From Micromonospora sp. R77 (GTDB taxonomy: Bacteria; Actinomycetota; Actinomycetes; Mycobacteriales; Micromonosporaceae), in the NCBI RefSeq assembly GCF_022747945.1, contig NZ_JALDST010000001.1:2976001-3040000 (forward strand): DNA of 64,000 nt, given 5' to 3'. The position numbers and the translations under genes are program-made. Shown piece after piece: positions 13,396-23,565 of this stretch (the first letter of the stretch is position 1; every line of letters starts with the position of its first letter). A model generated the notes under the pieces. The model did not search any database and was not told the DNA's origin. It was given only the letters and a program-made list of their open reading frames with translations.

Positions 13396-15474
13396 TCAGT
13401 CGTCCAGCCAGTCCAGCCTGCGGCCGCCCCGGTCCTGCGGCGGCGGCCCGTCCGGGCGGGCCCGCCCGGCCTGGGCCGGGTCACCGTAGTAGCCGCCCTG
13501 CTCCTGGCCCTGGTTGTCGTAGCCGGGGCTGCGCTGCTGCGGCGGCTCCTGGCCGTAGCCACCCTGCTGGCCGTAGCCGCCCTGCGGTGCCTGACCGTAG
13601 CCGTCGCCCTGCTGCGGCTGGCCGTAACCGCCGCGCTGGTCGTAGCCGTCGTAGCCCTGCTGCTGACCACCGTCGTAGCCGCCGCCGGCAGGCGCGTTGT
13701 CGTAGCCGCGGCCGGTCGGCGCGTTGTCGTAGCCGCGACCCGCCGGGGCGTTGTCGTAACCGCCGCCCGCCGGGGCGTTGTCGTAGCCGCCGCCGGGCGC
13801 GGTGCCGTAGCCACCACCCGAGGCGCCGTAGCCGCCGTCCTGGCCGTAGCCGGTGCCCGGCTCCGGCGCGCGGCCGTACGGGCCCGGCTCGGGTTGGCCG
13901 TAGCCCCGGCCCTGGTCCGCCTGCGGCTGGTAGGTGCTGGTCGGATACGGGTCGGCCGCCGGGGCGTAGGACGTGCTGTCACCGGTGTAGCGGCCGGTGG
14001 GCTCGTCGTACCGCTCGCCGCCGTAGCCGCCGCCCTGGGCCGGCGGGTAGCCCGCCGCCCCGGCAGCGCCGGCCGCACCGGCACCGTAGTCCCGGCCGCC
14101 GTAGCCACCGCCGGACGCGGGTGCGTCGCCGTAGCCGCCACCCGAGGCCGGCGCGTTGCCGTAACCGCCGCCCGAGGCGGGCGCGTTGCCGTAGCCGTTG
14201 CCGGCGCCGTAGCCGCCCTGAGCGGGGGCCTCGTCGCCGTAGCCGCTGCCGGCCCAGCCCGGCTGCCCGCCCGATCCGTACGCGGGCGGTGGGGCACCGT
14301 ACGGGTCCGGCGGGACGTCGTCGACCACCGGGCGGTGCATCATCGTCGGGGCGTCGCTGAGCGAGGTGCCACCGACCATGGTGGGAGCCGGGCCGAGACC
14401 CATCCCGCCGTTGACCACCCGGGTCTGGTCGTCCGTACCCCGGTAGGCGCCCCGGGCGTTCGGGACCGGGCTCGCGGCGGCGGCCGGGACGGCCTCGTCG
14501 TCGGGGTCGTCGCCCTCGTTCTTGCGGCGCATGTAGAGCAGCACGATGGTGCCGACGCCGACGGCCACGAAGAGGCCGCCGAGCAGGATCAGCAGCCACG
14601 AGCCGAAGCCGCCCGAGTCCTCGTTGGCGGCGGCGGCCACCTGGCCGGGGCTCGTCTCGGGGGCGCTCTCCTCGGGGGAGGCGTCGTCGCTCGCCTCATC
14701 CGACGGGGTGGCCTCGGCGCTCGCCGACGGGCTGGCGCTCGGGGTGGCCTCGGTCTTGATCGGCAGGCTGAGCCGCTGGCCGGTCACGCTCTGGCCGGCG
14801 TTCGCGGTGAAATTCTTGTAGACCTTGACGTCGTTCAGGACGGCACCGAGGTCGATCCGGCCCGGCGCGATCGGCGCCGACTCGGAGCCGTTGAACCGGT
14901 AGTTGCCCTTGTCGTCGCTGATCGTGGTGTACCGGTGCTGCTGCGAGTCGAGCAGCATCACGGTGGCGTTCGGCACCGCGTCGCCGGTGGACGAGTTGGT
15001 GACCTTGCCGGAGACCAGCTTGACCGTCTGCACCTGCTGCTGGGTCGGGCTGGGCGCGGCCTTCGCCTTCACCGTCAGCGAGAAGGTCGGCGTGGCCGGG
15101 TTGGACTTGTCCGGCTTGACCTGCACCGTCACGTTCGTGTTGGCGTCCGACACGTTGTCGTTGGCCCGGATGGTCAGCACCTGCGTCTTCGGCGAACCGG
15201 GCGGGCCGTTGAACTGGAAGTTGCCGCAACCGCTGCTGCAGCTGACGCCGGACGGGAGGCCGGTGAGGTTGAGGTCACCGCTCTTGTCCTCGGTACCCGG
15301 CGTGATGACCACGGTGACCGTGGCGTCGCTACCGGCGTTCAGGGTGACCGACTGTGGCTGCACGACGGCCTCGGCCGCGAGGGCCGGTGTGGCGGGGACG
15401 GTGAGCAGGGCGCCGGCAACCAGCGCTACGACCACACCGGCCCGCTGCTTCCAGGCACGTCGGTGTGTTGACAC
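13396..15474 (-). CDS. Secreted single-pass membrane protein with SdrD/CNA-B-like domain and Gly-Tyr-rich cytoplasmic tail
   Basis: 692 residues from the GTG at 15474 (GGAAGG eight bases upstream). A signal peptide ends near ALAAE (about residue 33). Outside the cell lie a beta-rich domain with a CSSGCGNF cysteine pair and a carboxypeptidase-regulatory/CNA-B-like domain ([21 protein letters not shown], then [10 protein letters not shown]). An acidic Ser/Pro/Glu linker and one membrane helix ([22 protein letters not shown], split here only by me at no point) lead to MRRKNEG and a cytoplasmic tail of about 370 residues. The tail is almost entirely [11 protein letters not shown] and [10 protein letters not shown] repeats with many Pro and Gln. 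Such Gly-Tyr-rich tails are typical of proteins that self-associate. Function is unknown; it may be a cell-envelope scaffold. Confidence 0.8.
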
Positions 15475-15632
15475 GTCCACCGCCTTCCGGTCTGACCTCC
15501 CTGGCCGGCGGATGCCGGGCCCGGGATCATCACGGTACGAATACGCCGTCGGCAACTATGCCTTGTCTGACCGGATCGGCGCGACCCAGGGCCAGCGTCG
15601 GAAGCGCTGCACTCGGGTCGTATCGTCCCGTC

Positions 15633-16070: not shown

Positions 16071-16151
16071 CGACGACGGTCCCGGCCGACCGCGCGGAGC
16101 TCTCCCCCGACTCCGCCCAGGCCAGTCCAGACCAGCATGAGGGAGCGGCAG

Positions 16152-17690
16152 GTGCCCCGAGGCGATGGCCGGCTGAGCCACGACCTTGACCCCCAACGAC
16201 CCGGCCCCCAGGACGCGTGCGGCGTCTTCGGTGTCTGGGCGCCGGGGGAAGAGGTCGCCAACCTCACCTATTTCGGGCTCTACGCCCTCCAGCACCGTGG
16301 CCAGGAGGCCGCCGGCATCGCGGTCAGCGACGGCTCCGGCGTGGTGGTCTACAAGGATCTCGGCCTGGTCGCCCAGGTCTTCGACGAGCCGACCCTGGCC
16401 AGCCTGCGCGGGCACCTCGCCATCGGGCACGCCCGCTACTCCACCACCGGCGGGTCGACCTGGGAGAACGCCCAGCCCACCATCCGGTCCACCACCTCCG
16501 GCACGACCATCGCGCTGGCCCACAACGGCAACCTGGTCAACACCGCCGAGCTCCAGCGGGAGGTGGCCGAGCGGGGTCTCGACTCCGACGGCTCGACCAA
16601 CGACACCTCGCTGGTCACGATGCTGCTGGCCGGCCGGCCGGATCTCTCCGTCGAGGCGGCCGCGCTGGAGGTGCTGCCGCAGCTGCGCGGCGCGTTCAGC
16701 TTCGTCTTCATGGACGAGTCGACGCTCTACGCCGCCCGTGACCCGCACGGCGTGCGCCCGCTGGTGCTGGGCCGGCTGGAGTGCGGCTGGGTGGTGGCCA
16801 GCGAGACCGCCGCGCTGGACATCGTCGGCGCCAGCGTGGTGCGCGAGGTCGAGCCGGGCGAGTTGATCGCCATCGACGAGGACGGGCTGCGCTCCACCCG
16901 GTTCGCCGCGCCGGAGCCGAAGGGCTGCCTCTTCGAGTACGTCTACATCGCCCGCCCGGACGCCACCATCGCCGGCCGGAACGTGCACGCCGCGCGGGTG
17001 CAGATCGGCCGCCAGCTCGCCAAGGAGCACCCGGTCGAGGCGGATCTGGTGATCCCGGTGCCGGAGTCCGGCACCCCGGCGGCGATCGGCTACGCCGAGG
17101 AGTCCGGCATCACCTACGGCGCGGGCCTGATGAAGAACCCGTACGTGGGGCGCACCTTCATCCAGCCGTCGCAGACGCTGCGCCAGCTCGGCATCCGGCT
17201 GAAGCTCAACCCGCTGCGGCAGAACGTGCGCGGCAAGCGGCTGGTCGTGGTGGACGACTCGATCGTGCGCGGCAACACCCAGCGCGCCATCGTGCGGATG
17301 CTGCGCGAGGCCGGGGCGCTGGAGGTGCACGTCCGGATCTCCTCGCCGCCGGTCAGCTGGCCGTGCTTCTACGGCATCGACTTCGCCACCCGGGCCGAGC
17401 TGCTGGCCAACGGGCTGGACAACGACGGCATCCGGCGCTCCATCGGTGCCGACACGCTGGGCTACGTATCGCTCCCCGGTCTCATCGCGGCGACCGAGCA
17501 GCCGAAGACCCGGCTGTGCCGGGCGTGTTTCGATGGGGAATACCCGATCGAGCTCCCGGCCGGGAACCTGATCGGCAAGCACGTCCTCGAAGGAGTGGGA
17601 CGTCGGGTCGCCACGGAGGCGGCCGACCCCACGGGGCACACCGCCCCTCCGCTCGTCGCCACTCCGGGCGGCGCGACCAACCGCCCGTAG
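16152..17690 (+). CDS. purF: Amidophosphoribosyltransferase
   Basis: 512 residues. The first committed enzyme of purine synthesis transfers ammonia from glutamine to PRPP. The N-terminal nucleophile is Cys23 in DACGVFGVW, so a 22-residue propeptide must be removed. The PRPP loop is VVVDDSIVRGNTQRAIV. Four cysteines (KGCLFEY, WPCFYGID, CRACFDG) fit the [4Fe-4S] cluster of the Bacillus-type enzyme. The GTG at 16152 follows GGGAG by about nine bases; the ATG at 16137 lacks a ribosome site. A 60-base gap with a small hairpin separates it from purM. Confidence 0.96.
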   Translation: MPRGDGRLSHDLDPQRPGPQDACGVFGVWAPGEEVANLTYFGLYALQHRGQEAAGIAVSDGSGVVVYKDLGLVAQVFDEPTLASLRGHLAIGHARYSTTGGSTWENAQPTIRSTTSGTTIALAHNGNLVNTAELQREVAERGLDSDGSTNDTSLVTMLLAGRPDLSVEAAALEVLPQLRGAFSFVFMDESTLYAARDPHGVRPLVLGRLECGWVVASETAALDIVGASVVREVEPGELIAIDEDGLRSTRFAAPEPKGCLFEYVYIARPDATIAGRNVHAARVQIGRQLAKEHPVEADLVIPVPESGTPAAIGYAEESGITYGAGLMKNPYVGRTFIQPSQTLRQLGIRLKLNPLRQNVRGKRLVVVDDSIVRGNTQRAIVRMLREAGALEVHVRISSPPVSWPCFYGIDFATRAELLANGLDNDGIRRSIGADTLGYVSLPGLIAATEQPKTRLCRACFDGEYPIELPAGNLIGKHVLEGVGRRVATEAADPTGHTAPPLVATPGGATNRP

Positions 17691-17751: not shown

Positions 17752-18906
17752 GTGACGCACGTGTCCGAGCGCAGCGGCGCAGGAAGCAGCCCGACGGGCG
17801 CCGGCGGCGACCGCCAGCCCTGGACGGCCGGCACCGGCCGCACGACGCGCAAACGCTCGGTCTCGTACGCGGACGCCGGAGTGTCGATCGAGGCGGGCGA
17901 CCGCGCGGTCGAGCTGCTGAAGTCCAAGGTCAAGTCCACCCGGCGCCCGGAGGTCATGGGTGACCTGGGCGGTTTCGCCGGCCTGTTCCGGCTGGACACG
18001 AAGAAATACAAGAACCCGATCCTGGCGTCGTCCACCGACGGTGTCGGCACCAAGCTGGTCATCGCCCAGCAGCTCGACATCCACGACACCATCGGCATCG
18101 ACCTGGTCGCCATGGTCGTCGACGACCTGGTCGCCTGTGGTGCCGAGCCGCTCTTCCTGCTCGACTACATCGCCACCGGCGAGGTCGTGCCGGACAAGGT
18201 CGCCGAGATCGGCGCCGGCATCGCCGACGGCTGCCGGTACGCGGGCTGCGCCCTGCTCGGCGGAGAGACCGCCGAGCACCCGGGTGTGCTGCGCCCCGAC
18301 GAGTACGACGTCTCCGCCACCGGTGTGGGTGTGGTGGAGGAGAGCGAGATCCTCAGCCCGGAGCGGGTCGAGGTCGGCGACGTGGTCATCGCGATGCGCT
18401 CCTCGGGCCTGCACTCCAACGGCTACTCGCTGGTGCGGCACGTGCTGCTCGGCGCGGGCCGGATGCGGCTGGACGTGGTGATCGAGGACTTCGGTCGGCA
18501 GCGCACCCTCGGTGAGGAGCTGCTCACCCCCACCAAGATCTATGCGCAGGACTGCCTCAAGCTGATCGCCGAGGCCGAGGTCCGCTCGATCGCCCACGTC
18601 ACCGGCGGCGGCATCCCGGGCAACCTGGTCCGGATCCTGCCGGAGCACGTCGACGCGGTGGTCAACCGCTCCACCTGGAAGCCGCAGCCGATCTTCGACC
18701 TGATCCAGTCCAAGGGACGGATCGAGGACCCGGAGATGGAGCAGACGTTCAACATGGGTGTCGGCATGTTCGCGATCGTCTCCCCCGAGGACGCCGACCG
18801 GGCGCTGGCCACCCTCACCGGGCGGGGCGTGGAGGCCTGGCAGGCCGGCGAGATCATCGAGGGTTCGGGCAACGTGCAGATGATCGGCCAGCACACCCGG
18901 GGCTGA
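17752..18906 (+). CDS. purM: Phosphoribosylformylglycinamidine cyclo-ligase (AIR synthetase)
   Basis: 384 residues from the GTG at 17752, with AGGGGAG about five bases upstream. PurM closes the imidazole ring (FGAM to AIR) with ATP. After a 35-residue variable N terminus, the typical SVSYADAGVSIEAGDRAVELLK is followed by SSTDGVGTKLVIAQQL, DLVACGAEPLFLLDY and ALLGGETAEHPGV, then VTGGGIPGNLVRILP near the C terminus. The length is slightly above the usual 350 because of the N-terminal tail. It is in the same direction as purF and probably co-transcribed. Confidence 0.96.
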   Translation: MTHVSERSGAGSSPTGAGGDRQPWTAGTGRTTRKRSVSYADAGVSIEAGDRAVELLKSKVKSTRRPEVMGDLGGFAGLFRLDTKKYKNPILASSTDGVGTKLVIAQQLDIHDTIGIDLVAMVVDDLVACGAEPLFLLDYIATGEVVPDKVAEIGAGIADGCRYAGCALLGGETAEHPGVLRPDEYDVSATGVGVVEESEILSPERVEVGDVVIAMRSSGLHSNGYSLVRHVLLGAGRMRLDVVIEDFGRQRTLGEELLTPTKIYAQDCLKLIAEAEVRSIAHVTGGGIPGNLVRILPEHVDAVVNRSTWKPQPIFDLIQSKGRIEDPEMEQTFNMGVGMFAIVSPEDADRALATLTGRGVEAWQAGEIIEGSGNVQMIGQHTRG

Positions 18907-18968
18907 TCACGCTGGGCTGATCATCCGGGCACCTGATCGGGGGTTCACCCGAGTGGCCACCGACGCCT

Positions 18969-18990
18969 AGCCTGAAGGTCACTTCAGGCT
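18969..18990. promoter_or_regulatory. Perfect 22-bp inverted repeat before amcB
   Basis: Nine-base arms AGCCTGAAG and CTTCAGGCT around GTCA end four bases before the GGAGGA ribosome site of the radical SAM gene. It could be an operator for a dimeric regulator or an RNA hairpin that limits translation. Confidence 0.6.
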
Positions 18991-19006: not shown

Positions 19007-20134
19007 ATGGCTGCTCGTACGCACCCCGGTATGCGCGGCGTCGCCGCTGTGCCGTCGTACGTGGTGATGCAGCCGACGACCCTCTGCAATCTGGACTGTG
19101 CCTACTGTTACCTGCCGCTGCGGGCGGCCGACCGGCGGATGCCCGTGTCGGTCGCCGAGGCGGTGGCGGCCTCGGTCAACCCGTGGGCGGCAACGGGCCG
19201 CTTCTCCGTCGTCTGGCACGGCGGGGAGCCGCTCGCGGCCGGCCGGGAGCACCTGGCCGCGCTGATCGCCCCGTTCGGGCCGGCGGTGGAGCACCACGTC
19301 CAGACCAACGCCACGCTGATCGACGACGCGTGGTGCGCGTTCTTCGTCGAGCACGGCATCCGGGTGAGCGTCAGCGTGGACGGGCCGCGTGAGCGCAACG
19401 GCGAGCGGGTCACCCGGGGTGGGCGTCTGGCGTACGACCGGATCGTGGCCGGGGTGGCGGCGCTGCGCCGGCACGGGCTGCCCTTCTCGGCCCTCGCGGT
19501 GGTCTCCCGGCCCGGCCCGGGGTTGGCCGCCGAGCTGTACGACTATTTCCTCGACCTCGGTTGTGACGTGCTGGGGGTCAACATCGAGGAGACCGAGGGC
19601 GTCAACCTGCGGGGCAATGCCCACGAGGCGGGCGCGGTGACGGCGTTCTGGGCCGAGCTGGTGGCCGCCTGGCGGCGGGAGCCGCGGATCCATCTGCGCG
19701 AGGTGGAGTGGTCGCTGCGCTACACGGCTGCGGTCCTGGCCGGCGGTGCGGACGACCTGCTGCCCCGGCAGCTCGACCCGATCCCGACGATCGGCCACGA
19801 CGGCTCGGTGGTGGTGCTCTCACCGGAGCTGGCCGGCTTCACCGACCCCCGGTACGGCGACTTCACCAGCGGCAACGTGCTGGCCACCCCGTTGGCGGAG
19901 ATCCTGGCCGGCGCGGGGCGGACGGGCTGGGTGGGGGAGTTCCTCACCGGGGTGGAGGCGTGCCGGTCGTCCTGTCCCTATTTCGGCTTCTGCGGTGGTG
20001 GTCACGCCGCCAACCGCTACTTCGAGCAGGGGCGTTTCGACGGTACGGAGACCGAACACTGCCGCAACAGCAAGATCCGCCTACTGGAGGGAGTGTTGGA
20101 GCATGCCCGAGACCACGAGTCACCGGCAGCCTGA
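19007..20134 (+). CDS. amcB: Radical SAM peptide maturase (cyclophane-forming, AmcB-like)
   Basis: 375 residues with GGAGGA six bases before the ATG. The radical SAM cluster motif is Cys27-x3-Cys31-x2-Cys34 (TLCNLDCAYCYLP). The partial TIM barrel includes SVVWHGGEPL and VEHHVQTNATLIDD. A C-terminal SPASM/twitch-like cysteine set (EACRSSCPYFGFCGGGHAAN, then EHC) would bind a further Fe-S cluster. Of the SPASM peptide maturases it best resembles the actinobacterial enzymes that make three-residue cyclophanes (triceptides), because the next gene encodes an AmcA-type precursor. The enzyme would crosslink an aromatic ring carbon to the beta carbon two residues on. The precursor gene starts inside its last 32 bases. 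Confident of radical SAM; the subfamily is inferred from the pairing. Confidence 0.9.
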   Translation: MAARTHPGMRGVAAVPSYVVMQPTTLCNLDCAYCYLPLRAADRRMPVSVAEAVAASVNPWAATGRFSVVWHGGEPLAAGREHLAALIAPFGPAVEHHVQTNATLIDDAWCAFFVEHGIRVSVSVDGPRERNGERVTRGGRLAYDRIVAGVAALRRHGLPFSALAVVSRPGPGLAAELYDYFLDLGCDVLGVNIEETEGVNLRGNAHEAGAVTAFWAELVAAWRREPRIHLREVEWSLRYTAAVLAGGADDLLPRQLDPIPTIGHDGSVVVLSPELAGFTDPRYGDFTSGNVLATPLAEILAGAGRTGWVGEFLTGVEACRSSCPYFGFCGGGHAANRYFEQGRFDGTETEHCRNSKIRLLEGVLEHARDHESPAA

Positions 20135-20339
20135 GCGCGTCGGGGAAGCCGTCGGAGATCCGGTGACCGACCGGGTACGCGAAGCCGCGGCGGGATTGAC
20201 CGCGCTGCTCCACGAGGCCGAGGCCGCACGCGTGCGGCGGTCGGAGGTGTCGGGCGGCGACGGTGCCAGCGCGGTCTGCGCCTGGAACCACTTCGAGAAC
20301 ATCCCGACGTTCTACAACTGGAACAACCGGCCCCGCTGA
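20103..20339 (+). CDS. amcA: RiPP precursor peptide, multi-cyclophane AmcA-like
   Basis: 78 residues; GGAGGGAG lies nine bases before the ATG at 20103, inside the end of amcB. Residues 1-50 form a helical charged leader (TDRVREAAAGLTALLHEAEA). The last 20 residues form the core, CAWNHFENIPTFYNWNNRPR, with four aromatic-x-x units: Trp61-Asn-His63, Phe64-Glu-Asn66, Phe70-Tyr-Asn72 and Trp73-Asn-Asn75. Asn at the third position is typical of the sites crosslinked by three-residue-cyclophane enzymes. No protease or exporter gene is adjacent, so leader removal must rely on genes elsewhere. A strong terminator follows. The ORF is short but its coding potential, ribosome site and family match are clear. 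Confidence 0.88.
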   Translation: MPETTSHRQPERVGEAVGDPVTDRVREAAAGLTALLHEAEAARVRRSEVSGGDGASAVCAWNHFENIPTFYNWNNRPR

Positions 20340-20352
20340 GGTAGGCGTCCGG

Positions 20353-20408
20353 GATCAGGGACCCGCCGGACGGCCGGAGCGTGCTCCGGGGCGGCGGGGT
20401 CCCTGATC
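20353..20408 (+). terminator. Hairpin terminator after amcA
   Basis: 16-bp stem (20353-20368 with 20392-20408, one bulged G) enclosing a smaller CCGGAGC/GCTCCGG hairpin, starting 14 bases after the amcA stop. Confidence 0.8.
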
Positions 20409-20485
20409 GTCGGCGTGGTGCCGCTTCAGGCGGGCACATGCGTGAGCACGCGGGGAGTCACCGCGTGCTCAGCTGTGTCCGGAGG

Positions 20486-20704
20486 TCAGCGGGTCGGACG
20501 GACCCAGGTGTCCGGGTCCTCGTCCGCGTGATCCTCATCATCGTCGTCGACATACTCTTTGTAGTCGTCGTCGAAGTGCTGTTCAGACTTCCCACCAGCA
20601 CCCGCCAGTTCGCGCTGCAAGGCGGTGAGGTCGGTGTTCGGGGAGTGGTACTTCAACTCCCGGGCCACCTTCGTCTGCTTGGCCTTAGCACGGCCGCGCC
20701 CCAT
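20486..20704 (-). CDS. DUF3073 domain protein
   Basis: 72 residues from the ATG at 20704, with GAGGGGG just upstream. The start MGRGRAKAKQTKVARELKY, then SPNTDLTALQRELAG, is the DUF3073 family of small actinobacterial proteins. The C-terminal 25 residues are highly acidic (DDDYKEYVDDDDEDHADED). The basic head and acidic tail suggest a nucleic-acid or ribosome-linked role, but none is established. Its place between purM and vdh is the same in Streptomyces, as I remember it. A longer reading frame upstream is not conserved in character and is rejected. Confidence 0.9.
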   Translation of the reverse strand: MGRGRAKAKQTKVARELKYHSPNTDLTALQRELAGAGGKSEQHFDDDYKEYVDDDDEDHADEDPDTWVRPTR

Positions 20705-21007
20705 GGCTCGACCCCCTCGCACAGAATGCGGGGCAGCCCGAAGGCGGGCCCCGATGACGTCAGGCATCTCTCGTGGCTCTTACGGTACATGGGGATGCCA
20801 CCGTTCGGCACCTCGGGTTACCGTCAGCCGGGGCTGCGCGTCGCAGTCATCCGGCCGTCACAAATTGTACCCGGTAAGGAGTGGGTGCCGGGACCGGCCG
20901 TGACAGCGGGCAAACGGTACGAAGTTTCCCAAAATCAGCTTAGCGCCGGCCGGCCCCGAACGGTGCTCCGGGGACGGAGCCGGAGCCCCGCCCCCGGAGG
21001 GAAATTC
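20705..21007. other. 303-bp intergenic region between DUF3073 gene and vdh
   Basis: No gene is seen. It should contain the promoter of the DUF3073 gene (minus) and the vdh terminator. An AT-richer patch near 20865-20885 (CACAAATTGTACC) is the likeliest promoter element. The vdh side is GC-rich hairpin sequence. Confidence 0.5.
20966..20999 (-). terminator. Hairpin after vdh
   Basis: Arms of 8 bp (20966-20973, 20992-20999) with additional GGAGCC/GGCTCC pairing options in the loop, ending nine bases from the vdh stop on the minus strand. Confidence 0.55.
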
Positions 21008-22090
21008 TCAGCGCAGGTGGATCGTCCGGAGCCGGCCGACCTCGGCCATCCGCCGCTCGGCGAGCCGGTCCGCGGCCACCGCCGGCGGCACACCCTCGGC
21101 GTCCGCGAGCCGGAGGATCTCCCGGGTGGTGTCGTAGATCCGGGTGGCCCGCAGCTTGGCGCGGTCGAAGTTGAAGCCCTCGATCTCGTCGGCCACCTGG
21201 ATCACACCGCCGGCGTTCACCACGTAGTCCGGGGCGTACAGGATGCCCCGGTCGGCGAGGATCTTCTCGATCCCGGCATGGGCGAGCTGGTTGTTCGCCG
21301 CTCCGGCGACCACCTTGGCGCGCAGCACCGGCACCGTGTCGTCGTTCAGGGCGCCGCCGAGCGCGCAGGGGGCGTACACGTCGATGTCGGACGCGACCAG
21401 CGCGGCGGCGTCGTCGACCAGCTCGACCTGCGGGTGGGTGGTGCGGACCCACTCCAGCGCCTTCGGGTTGACGTCGGTCGCCACCACCTCGGCGCCGTCG
21501 GACAGCAGGTGGCCGGTGAGGTACTTGCCGACCTTGCCCAGGCCGGCCACGCCGACCCGGCGGCCGGCCAGCGACGGGGTGCCCCAGACGTGCTCGGCGG
21601 CGGCCCGCATGCCCTGGAAGACGCCCCAGGCGGTCAGGATCGACGAGTCGCCGGCGCCGCCGTGCTCCACGCTGCGACCGGTGACGTAGCTGGTCTCCCG
21701 GGCGATCACATCCATGTCGGCGACGTAGGTGCCGACGTCGCACGCGGTGTAGTAGCGGCCGTTCAGCGACTCCACGAAGCGGCCGTAGGCGCGCAGCAGC
21801 GCCTCGCTCTTGGTCTGCTCCGGGTCGCCCCAGATGACGGCCTTGCCGCCGCCGAGGTCCAGGCCGGCGAGCGCGTTCTTGTACGCCATGCCACGGGACA
21901 GGTCGAGCACGTCGGCGAGGGCGTCGGCCTCGCTCGCGTACGGGTAGAACCGGGTTCCGCCGAGCGCGGGGCCCAGCGCGGTGGAGTAGATCCCGATGAT
22001 CGCCTTGAGGCCGGACTGCTTGTCCTGGCAGAACACGACCTGTTCGTGACCGGTCGATCCCGGGTCTTCGGTGCTGGCGAATACGCCCAT
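21008..22090 (-). CDS. vdh: Valine/leucine dehydrogenase (Glu/Leu/Phe/Val family)
   Basis: 360 residues, AGGAG before the ATG. The NAD-dependent enzyme deaminates branched-chain amino acids to their 2-oxo acids, feeding branched acyl-CoA starter and extender units. The catalytic lysine lies in [15 protein letters not shown], the substrate-binding region in [19 protein letters not shown], and the nucleotide-binding turn in [12 protein letters not shown]. The length equals streptomycete Vdh. The position between DUF3073 and the conserved gene before bldC matches the Streptomyces order, which favours valine dehydrogenase over leucine dehydrogenase. It is divergent from the next gene, sharing a 173-bp promoter region. 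Confidence 0.92.
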
Positions 22091-22263: not shown

Positions 22264-23103
22264 GTGCCCTCGCTCTTCGCTTCGTACCTGCGCGTGTACG
22301 AGCCGCTGACCGCCTTCGACCGGGACCGGCAGTCGTACTGGCGCCGGTACGTCAACGAGGGTCGGGCCGTGGCGCCCCTGGAGGGGCCGGTCCGGCAACG
22401 GACGTCGGTGATCGAGGCGCTCGGCGCGGGCTGGACCCGACTGCCCGACCTGCCGGACGAGGCGTACGTCCTGGAGACCGACGACGCGCTGCTGGTCTGC
22501 CCGTGGAACCTGCGGATCCGGGTGGCCGAGGCGGCGTTGAGCGCCCGGGACGGGGTGCCGTCGGTGCTGGCCGACGCGTTCGTGCCGCCGATCCTGGCCG
22601 GTCAGGCCAAGGCGGTGGTGGAGGACTGGCGCAGCGGGGCCCGGGTGCTGGAGCACGGGGTGCCCCGGGTGCACGAGCAGGTCGCCACCTGGGGTGTGCC
22701 GCTGAGGTGGTTCGTGCTCTTCGATGCCGACGAGCGGCACCTGGTGACCGACCCGGGCCGGCGGGCGATGCGCTACCGCACCGAGATCTCCAAGGCCCGC
22801 CGCCGGTCGTCCCGGGCGCTGTCGGTGCTGCGCAAGTCGGTCGGCGAGGCACCGATCACCGAGGCGGTCGAGGAGGCCGCCCGGTGGCTGGAGGAGTTCC
22901 ACCCGCGTTCGGTGGTCGAGCTGGACTACGGCGGCCTGGTGCAGCTGCTCCCGGACGACACCCTGACGGCCGACGACTCGACGGAGCTGGTGGCGAACGG
23001 CCTGGCCGCGCTCTCCCGGGGCGAGGCGGACGAGGCCTCCGCCGCCTACGACAAGCTGGTCGCCCGCTGGCGGGCGGTGCAGCTGCTGGAACGGTGCAAC
23101 TAG
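22264..23103 (+). CDS. Conserved actinobacterial protein upstream of bldC
   Basis: 279 residues from the GTG at 22264. I do not recognise a characterised domain. The protein is soluble, with an N-terminal [23 protein letters not shown], a central [18 protein letters not shown] and [16 protein letters not shown], and a helical C terminus. Orthologues, as I recall, sit between vdh and bldC in Streptomyces (the SCO4090 position), so it is part of a conserved gene block. The basic stretch around residue 175 could bind nucleic acid, but this is only an impression. Confidence 0.8.
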
Positions 23104-23355
23104 CGCGAAACTTCGCGGGGAGCGCTCCCAATTTGAGAATGCCTCGTAGTTTACGCATCACCATCCGTGATCATGAGTCCGAATAAGGTACTTTCTGACG
23201 TGTAAAAGTCGTAAAAATCGGGCATGGTTCATCCGTCCGTCTAGGGACCTTCAGCCGTTCGGCCCATGTCGGACATCGGGGACTAGCCGGACCATGGGAG
23301 ACGCGTCGGCCGGCGGGACCCCGGCCGATGTCTATACATGTGGAGGAGTGACCCG

Positions 23356-23565
23356 ATGGCATCGCGAACGCACGAACCAGAGCCGCTACTCACGCCGGCC
23401 GAGGTGGCGTCGATGTTCCGTGTCGACCCGAAGACGGTGACCCGGTGGGCCAAGGCTGGCAAGCTCAGCGCCATCCGGACCCTCGGCGGCCACCGCCGCT
23501 ACCGCGAGTCGGAGGTCAGGGCCCTGCTGCAGGGTCAGATCCCGCAGCAGCGCCAGGGGGACTGA
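23356..23565 (+). CDS. bldC: Developmental regulator BldC, MerR-like DNA-binding protein
   Basis: 69 residues from the ATG at 23356, with GGAGGA nine bases upstream. It is a single winged helix-turn-helix domain of the MerR family without an effector domain: LLTPAEVASMFRVDPKTVTRWAKAG, quoted here in parts as LLTPAEVASMFRVD and KTVTRWAKAGKL, then RTLGGHRRYRESEV. In Streptomyces, BldC binds direct repeats cooperatively and delays the onset of sporulation. The near-complete identity of the visible motifs and the gene neighbourhood make the call firm. The 252-bp region before it has an AT-rich patch (23180-23220) and a TATACA at 23333 that may be part of its promoter. Confidence 0.96.
   Translation: MASRTHEPEPLLTPAEVASMFRVDPKTVTRWAKAGKLSAIRTLGGHRRYRESEVRALLQGQIPQQRQGD

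What the first reader, a model, noticed from the sequence alone, without database searches (positions are those of the whole stretch)
19007..20339. Two-gene triceptide (multi-cyclophane) RiPP locus
A SPASM-type radical SAM enzyme gene is followed, with a 32-base overlap, by a 78-residue precursor whose last 20 residues hold four aromatic-x-x motifs (WNH, FEN, FYN, WNN). This predicts a peptide with up to four strained cyclophanes. The precursor is downstream of the maturase and no protease or transporter gene is adjacent. The motif types and the tight core differ from the single-cyclophane systems, and the exact product is not known.
Basis: partly seen in the sequence, partly recalled or inferred. 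Interest (0 to 1): 0.82.

Follow-up and report, generated by a model that had tools for sequence, protein, structure and literature searches.

The report
Invariant multi-cyclophane peptide locus (amcBA)
A Micromonospora-type genome carries a two-gene operon whose enzyme probably staples the tail of a small peptide into rigid rings; the pair belongs to a named family, but the tail is almost letter-for-letter identical across much of a bacterial family, which suggests a conserved internal role rather than a weapon.

Summary
AmcB (19007-20134) and a 78-residue precursor AmcA (20103-20339) overlap by 32 bases, and both clear curated NCBIfam cut-offs (NF041718, 516.5 bits against 425; NF041722 AmcA_3a, 120.1 against 65). 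This is a member of a named multi-cyclophane family, not a new system.

What stands out is conservation. The core AVCAWNHFENIPTF(Y/F)NWNNRP occurs in 243 of 300 sampled genomes of the family; AmcB is over cut-off in 258 of 300. Of the other 15, 13 have other aromatic-x-x cores, one breaks at a contig edge and one showed only a distant paralogue. In named loci the pair lies between purM and DUF3073 almost always. Most of the leader varies.

The 12 non-fused alternative cores keep three motifs (such as FED/FYQ/FTN) without WNH. One lineage has the precursor fused to the maturase with two motifs left. So FEN, FYN and WNN are the best-supported rings; WNH is uncertain.

Most likely AmcB links the aromatic ring to the third residue's C-beta, and a host protease frees a fixed peptide with a conserved target. 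No chemistry was tested here.

The parts
19007..20134 (+). amcB: cyclophane-forming radical SAM peptide maturase
   Evidence: NF041718 516.5 bits, cut-off 425; PF04055; C27, C31, C34 and C319, C323, C329, C352 invariant in 37 aligned proteins; AlphaFold2 pLDDT 93.7, best PDB match ChlB
20103..20339 (+). amcA: 78-residue precursor peptide, type 3a
   Evidence: NF041722 120.1 bits, cut-off 65; 1046 relatives found; the 120 listed (those most like the query) all end in the same 22 residues
20172..20246 (+). conserved leader segment of AmcA (residues 24-48), probable AmcB recognition helix
   Evidence: R24, L32, L35, E38, A39, A42, R43, R46, E48 at 0.97-1.0 in the aligned precursors; role inferred
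20271..20336 (+). near-invariant 22-residue core AVCAWNHFENIPTFYNWNNRPR
20292..20300 (+). motif FEN (predicted cyclophane)
   Evidence: counterparts FED/FSD/WTD in other cores beside AmcB
20310..20318 (+). motif FYN (predicted cyclophane)
   Evidence: counterparts FYQ/FYE/FWE/FTE and FYN/YYN; one fused protein has FYG
20319..20327 (+). motif WNN (predicted cyclophane; a counterpart is kept in all types seen)
   Evidence: counterparts FTN/FSN and WHN
20283..20291 (+). motif WNH (possible fourth cyclophane, type 3a only)
   Evidence: WRP/WRA or no W in 3b cores, no counterpart in the six fused tails
18966..18974 (+). CCTAGCCTG box, possible -10 region of an amcBA promoter
   Evidence: in 68 of 105 upstream regions, mean 0.08 in letter-shuffled controls
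20349..20409 (+). strong hairpin between amcA and the convergent DUF3073 gene, possible terminator
   Evidence: fold of 20340-20430: -58.6 kcal/mol, z -3.88

Best explanation
amcBA is a two-gene RiPP operon of the AmcB/AmcA (triceptide) family. AmcB binds the helical leader of AmcA and, by radical SAM chemistry, joins the ring of the first residue of aromatic-x-x motifs to the C-beta of the third residue, most probably at FEN, FYN and WNN and perhaps also at WNH. A general host protease would then release the C-terminal peptide of about 20-22 residues. Because that sequence is almost invariant across much of the family and sits beside housekeeping genes, it most likely serves a conserved internal purpose (signal, morphogen, metal or protein ligand) rather than acting as an antibiotic. 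Shown here: membership in the sequence families, conservation, synteny, motif comparison, predicted fold. Inferred: ring chemistry, ring number, cleavage, function.
For: Both partners exceed curated cut-offs. The AmcB model resembles ChlB (TM 0.74/0.75), named a radical SAM multiple cyclophane synthase in a reference title. The core is exact in 243 of 300 family genomes, by my count of the rows 106 of 106 in the own genus. AmcB is over cut-off in 258 of 300; of the 15 without the core, 13 carry other aromatic-x-x cores, all 13 with purM directly upstream. Codons vary at 17 of 22 core positions, while the residue changes only Y to F in 9 and R78 to S in 1 of 121 (ten of the 22 positions were fixed by the pattern that fetched the loci). 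Synteny in 121 loci: amcB 106 of 106, purM 93 of 98, DUF3073 108 of 108 testable. Type-1 paralogues show 11 different 24-residue cores in 19 loci.
Against: No mass or NMR data; ring number and position rest on motif comparison by eye. One fused protein (P0130) has Gly, which lacks C-beta, at the third position of its FYx motif. Named loci were chosen by a core pattern, so invariance of W61-F70 in them is built in; only searches are free of that. Strict conservation is not unique here: some 22-mers of purM and DUF3073 are shared by all loci tested. 42 of 300 family genomes have no AmcB over cut-off, so the pair is dispensable in whole lineages. No leader protease was identified. Vertical descent was not tested by comparing gene trees.
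Confidence: 0.72

Rival explanations
1. All four motifs, WNH included, become cyclophanes, so the product is tetracyclic.
For: WNH is as invariant as the rest of the 3a core. A multiple cyclophane synthase of similar fold is known (ChlB, by title).
Against: Other cores beside AmcB have WRP or WRA, no W, or no counterpart. Invariance of the whole core cannot single out WNH.
Confidence: 0.4
2. The product is a secreted antibacterial peptide (bacteriocin-like).
For: Cross-linked RiPPs such as darobactin and dynobactin are antibiotics (passages).
Against: No transporter or protease among the window's immediate neighbours; flanks of relatives were tested only for purM, DUF3073 and the other window genes. 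One core without diversification in 243 genomes.
Confidence: 0.15
3. The modified tail acts while still attached to its carrier (peptide cofactor or protein ligand); cleavage is not needed.
For: Six divergent proteins carry a core fused to the maturase; in G092 no separate precursor was seen in the 450 bases after the aligned end of AmcB, which hold the fused tail. No protease gene is linked in the window.
Against: In the window and nearly all relatives AmcA is a separate small protein, and fusion tails could still be cleaved. The fusions come from metagenomes or metagenome-assembled genomes as far as their sources show.
Confidence: 0.2
4. The ORF pair is a decayed or unexpressed relic.
For: The own genome does contain a second AmcB that keeps only its C-terminal part.
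Against: Strong constraint on the core, intact overlapping genes, a conserved promoter-like box.
Confidence: 0.02

Closest known systems
AmcB/AmcA (NCBIfam NF041718, NF041722 AmcA_3a; probably the group of Phan and Morinaka, ACS Chem Biol 2022, seen only as a title in reference lists)
   Same: Both proteins pass curated cut-offs; adjacent genes; several aromatic-x-x motifs at the precursor's C-terminus
   Different: No clear difference; an ordinary 3a member
AmcA_1 systems (NF041721), clade B maturases
   Same: Homologous maturase (about 40% identical), downstream precursor with motifs FDN/WDN/FDS/WDN
   Different: Separate clade, other neighbours, core varies between species of one genus
GrrM/OscB (TIGR04261)
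   Same: Radical SAM triceptide maturase, second-best model (228 bits)
   Different: Below its cut-off of 310; precursors are Gly-rich repeats (recalled)
ChlB multiple cyclophane synthase (PDB 9gm3, 9gmc)
   Same: Best fold match, TM 0.74/0.75, solved with its precursor
   Different: About 21% identity; ChlB is a domain of a protein fused to an alphaKG-HExxH domain (passages), of which the 375-residue AmcB shows no sign

Membership tests
AmcB (NF041718) | Whole-protein score above curated cut-off 425 | tested here: met
   516.5 bits
AmcB (NF041718) | CxxxCxxC radical SAM motif | tested here: met
   C27, C31, C34 invariant in 37 aligned proteins; in a set of 108 they are at 0.97-0.98
SPASM domain (Pfam; accession PF13186 recalled) | Pfam match to the C-terminal domain | tested here: not met
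   Only PF04055 found at E<=0.01; four invariant C-terminal Cys
AmcA_3a (NF041722) | Score above cut-off 65 | tested here: met
   120.1 bits over residues 21-78
AmcA_3b (NF041723) | Score above cut-off 65 | tested here: not met
   38.2 bits
GrrM/OscB (TIGR04261) | Score above cut-off 310 | tested here: not met
   228 bits
Triceptides | Aromatic-x-x motifs in the precursor | tested here: met
   WNH, FEN, FYN, WNN
Triceptides | Aryl carbon to C-beta (i, i+2) bond in the product | not testable with these tools
   Needs mass spectrometry and NMR; definition from passages of PMC11002830

The most novel reading that the evidence does not exclude
A housekeeping triceptide: a family-wide, single-site, virtually invariant multi-ring peptide of Micromonosporaceae that serves a conserved cellular role (for example as developmental signal or protein-bound ligand), and that one lineage keeps permanently attached to its maturase as an enzyme-substrate fusion with a two-motif minimal core.
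Probability: 0.4. Interest if true: 0.7.

Novelty: new member of a known kind. Interest (0 to 1): 0.42.

Why it matters
A 2025 paper says that the bioactivities of triceptides have not yet been elucidated (PMC12257519, passage). A RiPP present in every sampled genome of a large actinobacterial genus, with a fixed sequence and a location beside housekeeping genes, is a good entry point: one knockout in a cultivable Micromonospora would test function for the whole group. The natural motif series (four, three and two motifs) and the maturase-precursor fusions are ready tests of which rings are made and whether release is needed.

Tried and rejected
The number in the model name (AmcA_3a) was considered as a ring count and rejected: AmcA_1 precursors have four or more motifs. 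An inverted repeat at 18969-18990 was considered as an operator. Hairpins of that quality are enriched (27 of 105 upstream regions, 6.1 in letter shuffles), but in a minority, so nothing is built on them. Extra constraint on the core at nucleotide level was considered: third-position variety at its six fourfold codons (0.17-0.65) overlaps that of AmcB (mean 0.45), so none is claimed. A search for more fusions with the tail of P0123 found only itself. It did not find the other known fusions either and says nothing about rarity. The phylum sample had AmcB at E<=1e-60 in 2 of 396, both of the own genus. Only 22 of the 396 rows are listed and only the best few candidates per genome were scored, so it bears only roughly on spread outside the family. 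Papers: the search listings showed no open paper on AmcA, on a conserved Micromonosporaceae triceptide or on such fusions. Subscription papers, the probable founding paper included, could not be read, so no priority is claimed.

Full report
Observation. The window carries purF (16137-17690), purM (17752-18906), the radical SAM gene amcB (19007-20134) and amcA (20103-20339), then on the minus strand DUF3073 (ORF 20486-20767) and a Glu/Leu/Phe/Val dehydrogenase (21008-22090), an unidentified ORF (22264-23103) and a BldC-like gene at 23338-23565 (purF, purM and BldC named with the help of recall). The 32-base overlap is exact. AmcA ends in AVCAWNHFENIPTFYNWNNRPR.

Family. NCBIfam places AmcB in NF041718 (516.5 bits; cut-off 425) and AmcA in NF041722, AmcA_3a (120.1; cut-off 65). 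GrrM/OscB, FxsB and the other models listed score below their cut-offs. The predicted AmcB structure (pLDDT 93.7) matches ChlB with its precursor best (E 8.7e-20, TM 0.74/0.75). ChlB is called a radical SAM multiple cyclophane synthase in a title in the reference list of PMC12636437 (passages). Triceptide chemistry is taken from passages of a review (PMC11002830): bonds between ring carbons of Trp, Phe, Tyr or His and the C-beta of residue i+2.

Distribution. In 61 genomes (37 of the own genus, 24 of other families of the order), AmcA_3a is over cut-off in 37, all of the own genus, one match each. In 300 genomes of the family, AmcB is over cut-off in 258, and the exact core pattern, with Y or F at one position, occurs in 243 (reversed control pattern 0 in the rows listed). 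By my count of the rows these are 106 of 106 in the own genus and 137 of 194 in other genera. With one genome per other genus, AmcA_3a is over cut-off in 23 of 43, and AmcB in 33 of 43. In a phylum sample AmcB at E<=1e-60 is in 2 of 396, both own genus. A scan of named genomes for W61-F70 stopped at its limit with 120 loci, so there are more. All 120 are Micromonosporaceae by NCBI's ranks, 21 genera.

Genomes with AmcB over cut-off but without the core. They are 15 of 258 by my comparison of the lists. G152 breaks off at a contig edge before a precursor could be read. In G100 only a clade-B AmcB was found. The other 13 (G062, G064, G068, G080, G082, G086, G092, G097, G098, G112, G119, G132, G138) carry alternative cores next to AmcB: 3b (RPFEDAFPTFYQFTNRPR and kin), a third form (RWTDVFTTQFTEFSNRPR; G082, G112, G132), or a fused form (G092). 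G068 also has a paralogue with a type-1 precursor (L283). I saw no core intermediate between 3a and these. Two further genomes with fragmentary AmcB under the cut-off (G102, G121) show 3b cores.

Conservation. In 121 loci (120 named plus the window) the core from A57 to P77 is identical but for Y71F in 9; R78 is changed in 1, and one core has an added Q. Codons vary at 17 of the 22 positions; two of the five others are Trp. The leader drifts except for conserved positions between R24 and E48. The fetching pattern fixed W61-F70 beforehand, so A57-A60 and Y71-R78 are the free part in these loci; together are the unselected test. AmcB itself is 79% identical on average, minimum 65%, in 1500 sampled pairs of 108 proteins. 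For scale, the best exact 22-mer is shared by 49% of 94 loci in AmcB, 84% of 82 in the dehydrogenase, 90% of 51 in purF, and all of 81 in purM and 57 in DUF3073. The AmcA core is thus as constrained as the strictest part of a housekeeping enzyme, and more than its own maturase; such constraint is not unique in this neighbourhood. As internal control, type-1 paralogues show 11 different 24-residue cores in 19 loci, 18 of the own genus plus the own genome. These were the best-scoring paralogues, and L071, which lacks the searched pattern, was left out.

Site. Among the 121 loci, amcB lies directly upstream in 106 of 106 testable, DUF3073 downstream in 108 of 108, purM upstream in 93 of 98. The 13 loci with other cores have purM directly upstream in 13 of 13; downstream comes DUF3073 in 8, bldC without DUF3073 in 4 (L144, L145, L273, L274), and a contig end in one (L276). 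In 24 loci around DUF3073 from genomes chosen mostly for lacking the pair, purM was found within the fetched stretch, facing DUF3073, in 6 (L291, L293, L297, L302, L305, L306), at distances from about 0.1 to 1.4 kb, and not in the other 18. An insertion into an older purM-DUF3073 junction is plausible and not proven. Gene trees were not compared.

Motif comparison, aligned by eye. 3a: WNH-FEN-IPT-FYN-WNN-RPR. 3b: (WRP)-FED-AFPT-FYQ-FTN-RPR, with W missing in L144, L145, L273 and L274. Third form: WTD-VFTTQ-FTE-FSN-RPR. Fused forms: five end in (F/Y)YN-W(N/H)N-R(P/S)R, one in FYG-WHN-RPR. This supports FEN, FYN and WNN as the shared set and leaves WNH undecided.

Fusions. A search with the G092 protein listed 120 of 1746 matches. 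Six (P0122, which is the G092 protein; P0123, P0126, P0127, P0128, P0130) have a leader-like or linker tail and a short core continuing the AmcB frame. P0127 also carries PF28164, the Pfam domain listed for the AmcA proteins. A seventh, P0241, joins a shortened 3a leader and core to AmcB and may be an artefact. In G092 the fusion lies between purM and DUF3073 (L309). In a tree of 44 maturases, the six fused rows and two AmcB of unknown arrangement form a starred clade (100/99) that lies, with clade B as outgroup, inside the 3a-type rows, so the two-motif form looks derived. The fused label needs two changes because of those two rows; 3b rows also need two changes, but starred branches do not force more than one. 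The outgroup branches are long and the program warns of it. All six appear to come from metagenomes or metagenome-assembled genomes, and only P0122's DNA was at hand. Their divergence (59-75% identical to it) argues against one frameshift artefact.

Mechanism and verdict. The chemistry class is secure by homology, the number of rings is not, and the biology is open. Lack of diversification, presence throughout the own genus and most sampled genomes of the family, one site beside housekeeping genes, a promoter-like box in 68 of 105 upstream regions and no export or protease gene among the window's immediate neighbours favour an internal conserved role. This is a new member of a known kind with a conservation pattern that deserves attention.

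Noticed in passing
L308 (G000:C1:488500-493000), minus strand of the locus, roughly locus 1940-2920: The same genome holds a second amc locus of type 1: an AmcA_1-like precursor with full core after an AmcB that keeps only its C-terminal part, with transposase-like reading frames nearby (identified from recall).
   Followed up: partly
L280 / L309 and proteins P0122, P0123, P0126, P0127, P0128, P0130: Natural fusions of the AmcB maturase with a shortened AmcA precursor at its C-terminus.
   Followed up: partly
L078, L084, L123, L308 downstream of type-1 precursors: A pentapeptide-repeat-like protein seems to be encoded next to type-1 amc pairs (named from its look, not from a family search).
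   Followed up: no
window 13396-15555 (-): Large surface-protein-like ORF with a long Gly/Tyr/Gln/Pro-rich repetitive tail ending RRLDWLDD; the same ending is seen upstream of amcB in L139, L141, L142 and L143.
   Followed up: no
window 18969-18990: Perfect 9-base inverted repeat (4-base loop) overlapping the putative -10 box upstream of amcB, found in a minority of relatives.
   Followed up: partly
L144, L145, L273, L274: Here the amc pair is followed directly by a bldC-like gene; the DUF3073 gene usually in between was not found in these loci.
   Followed up: no
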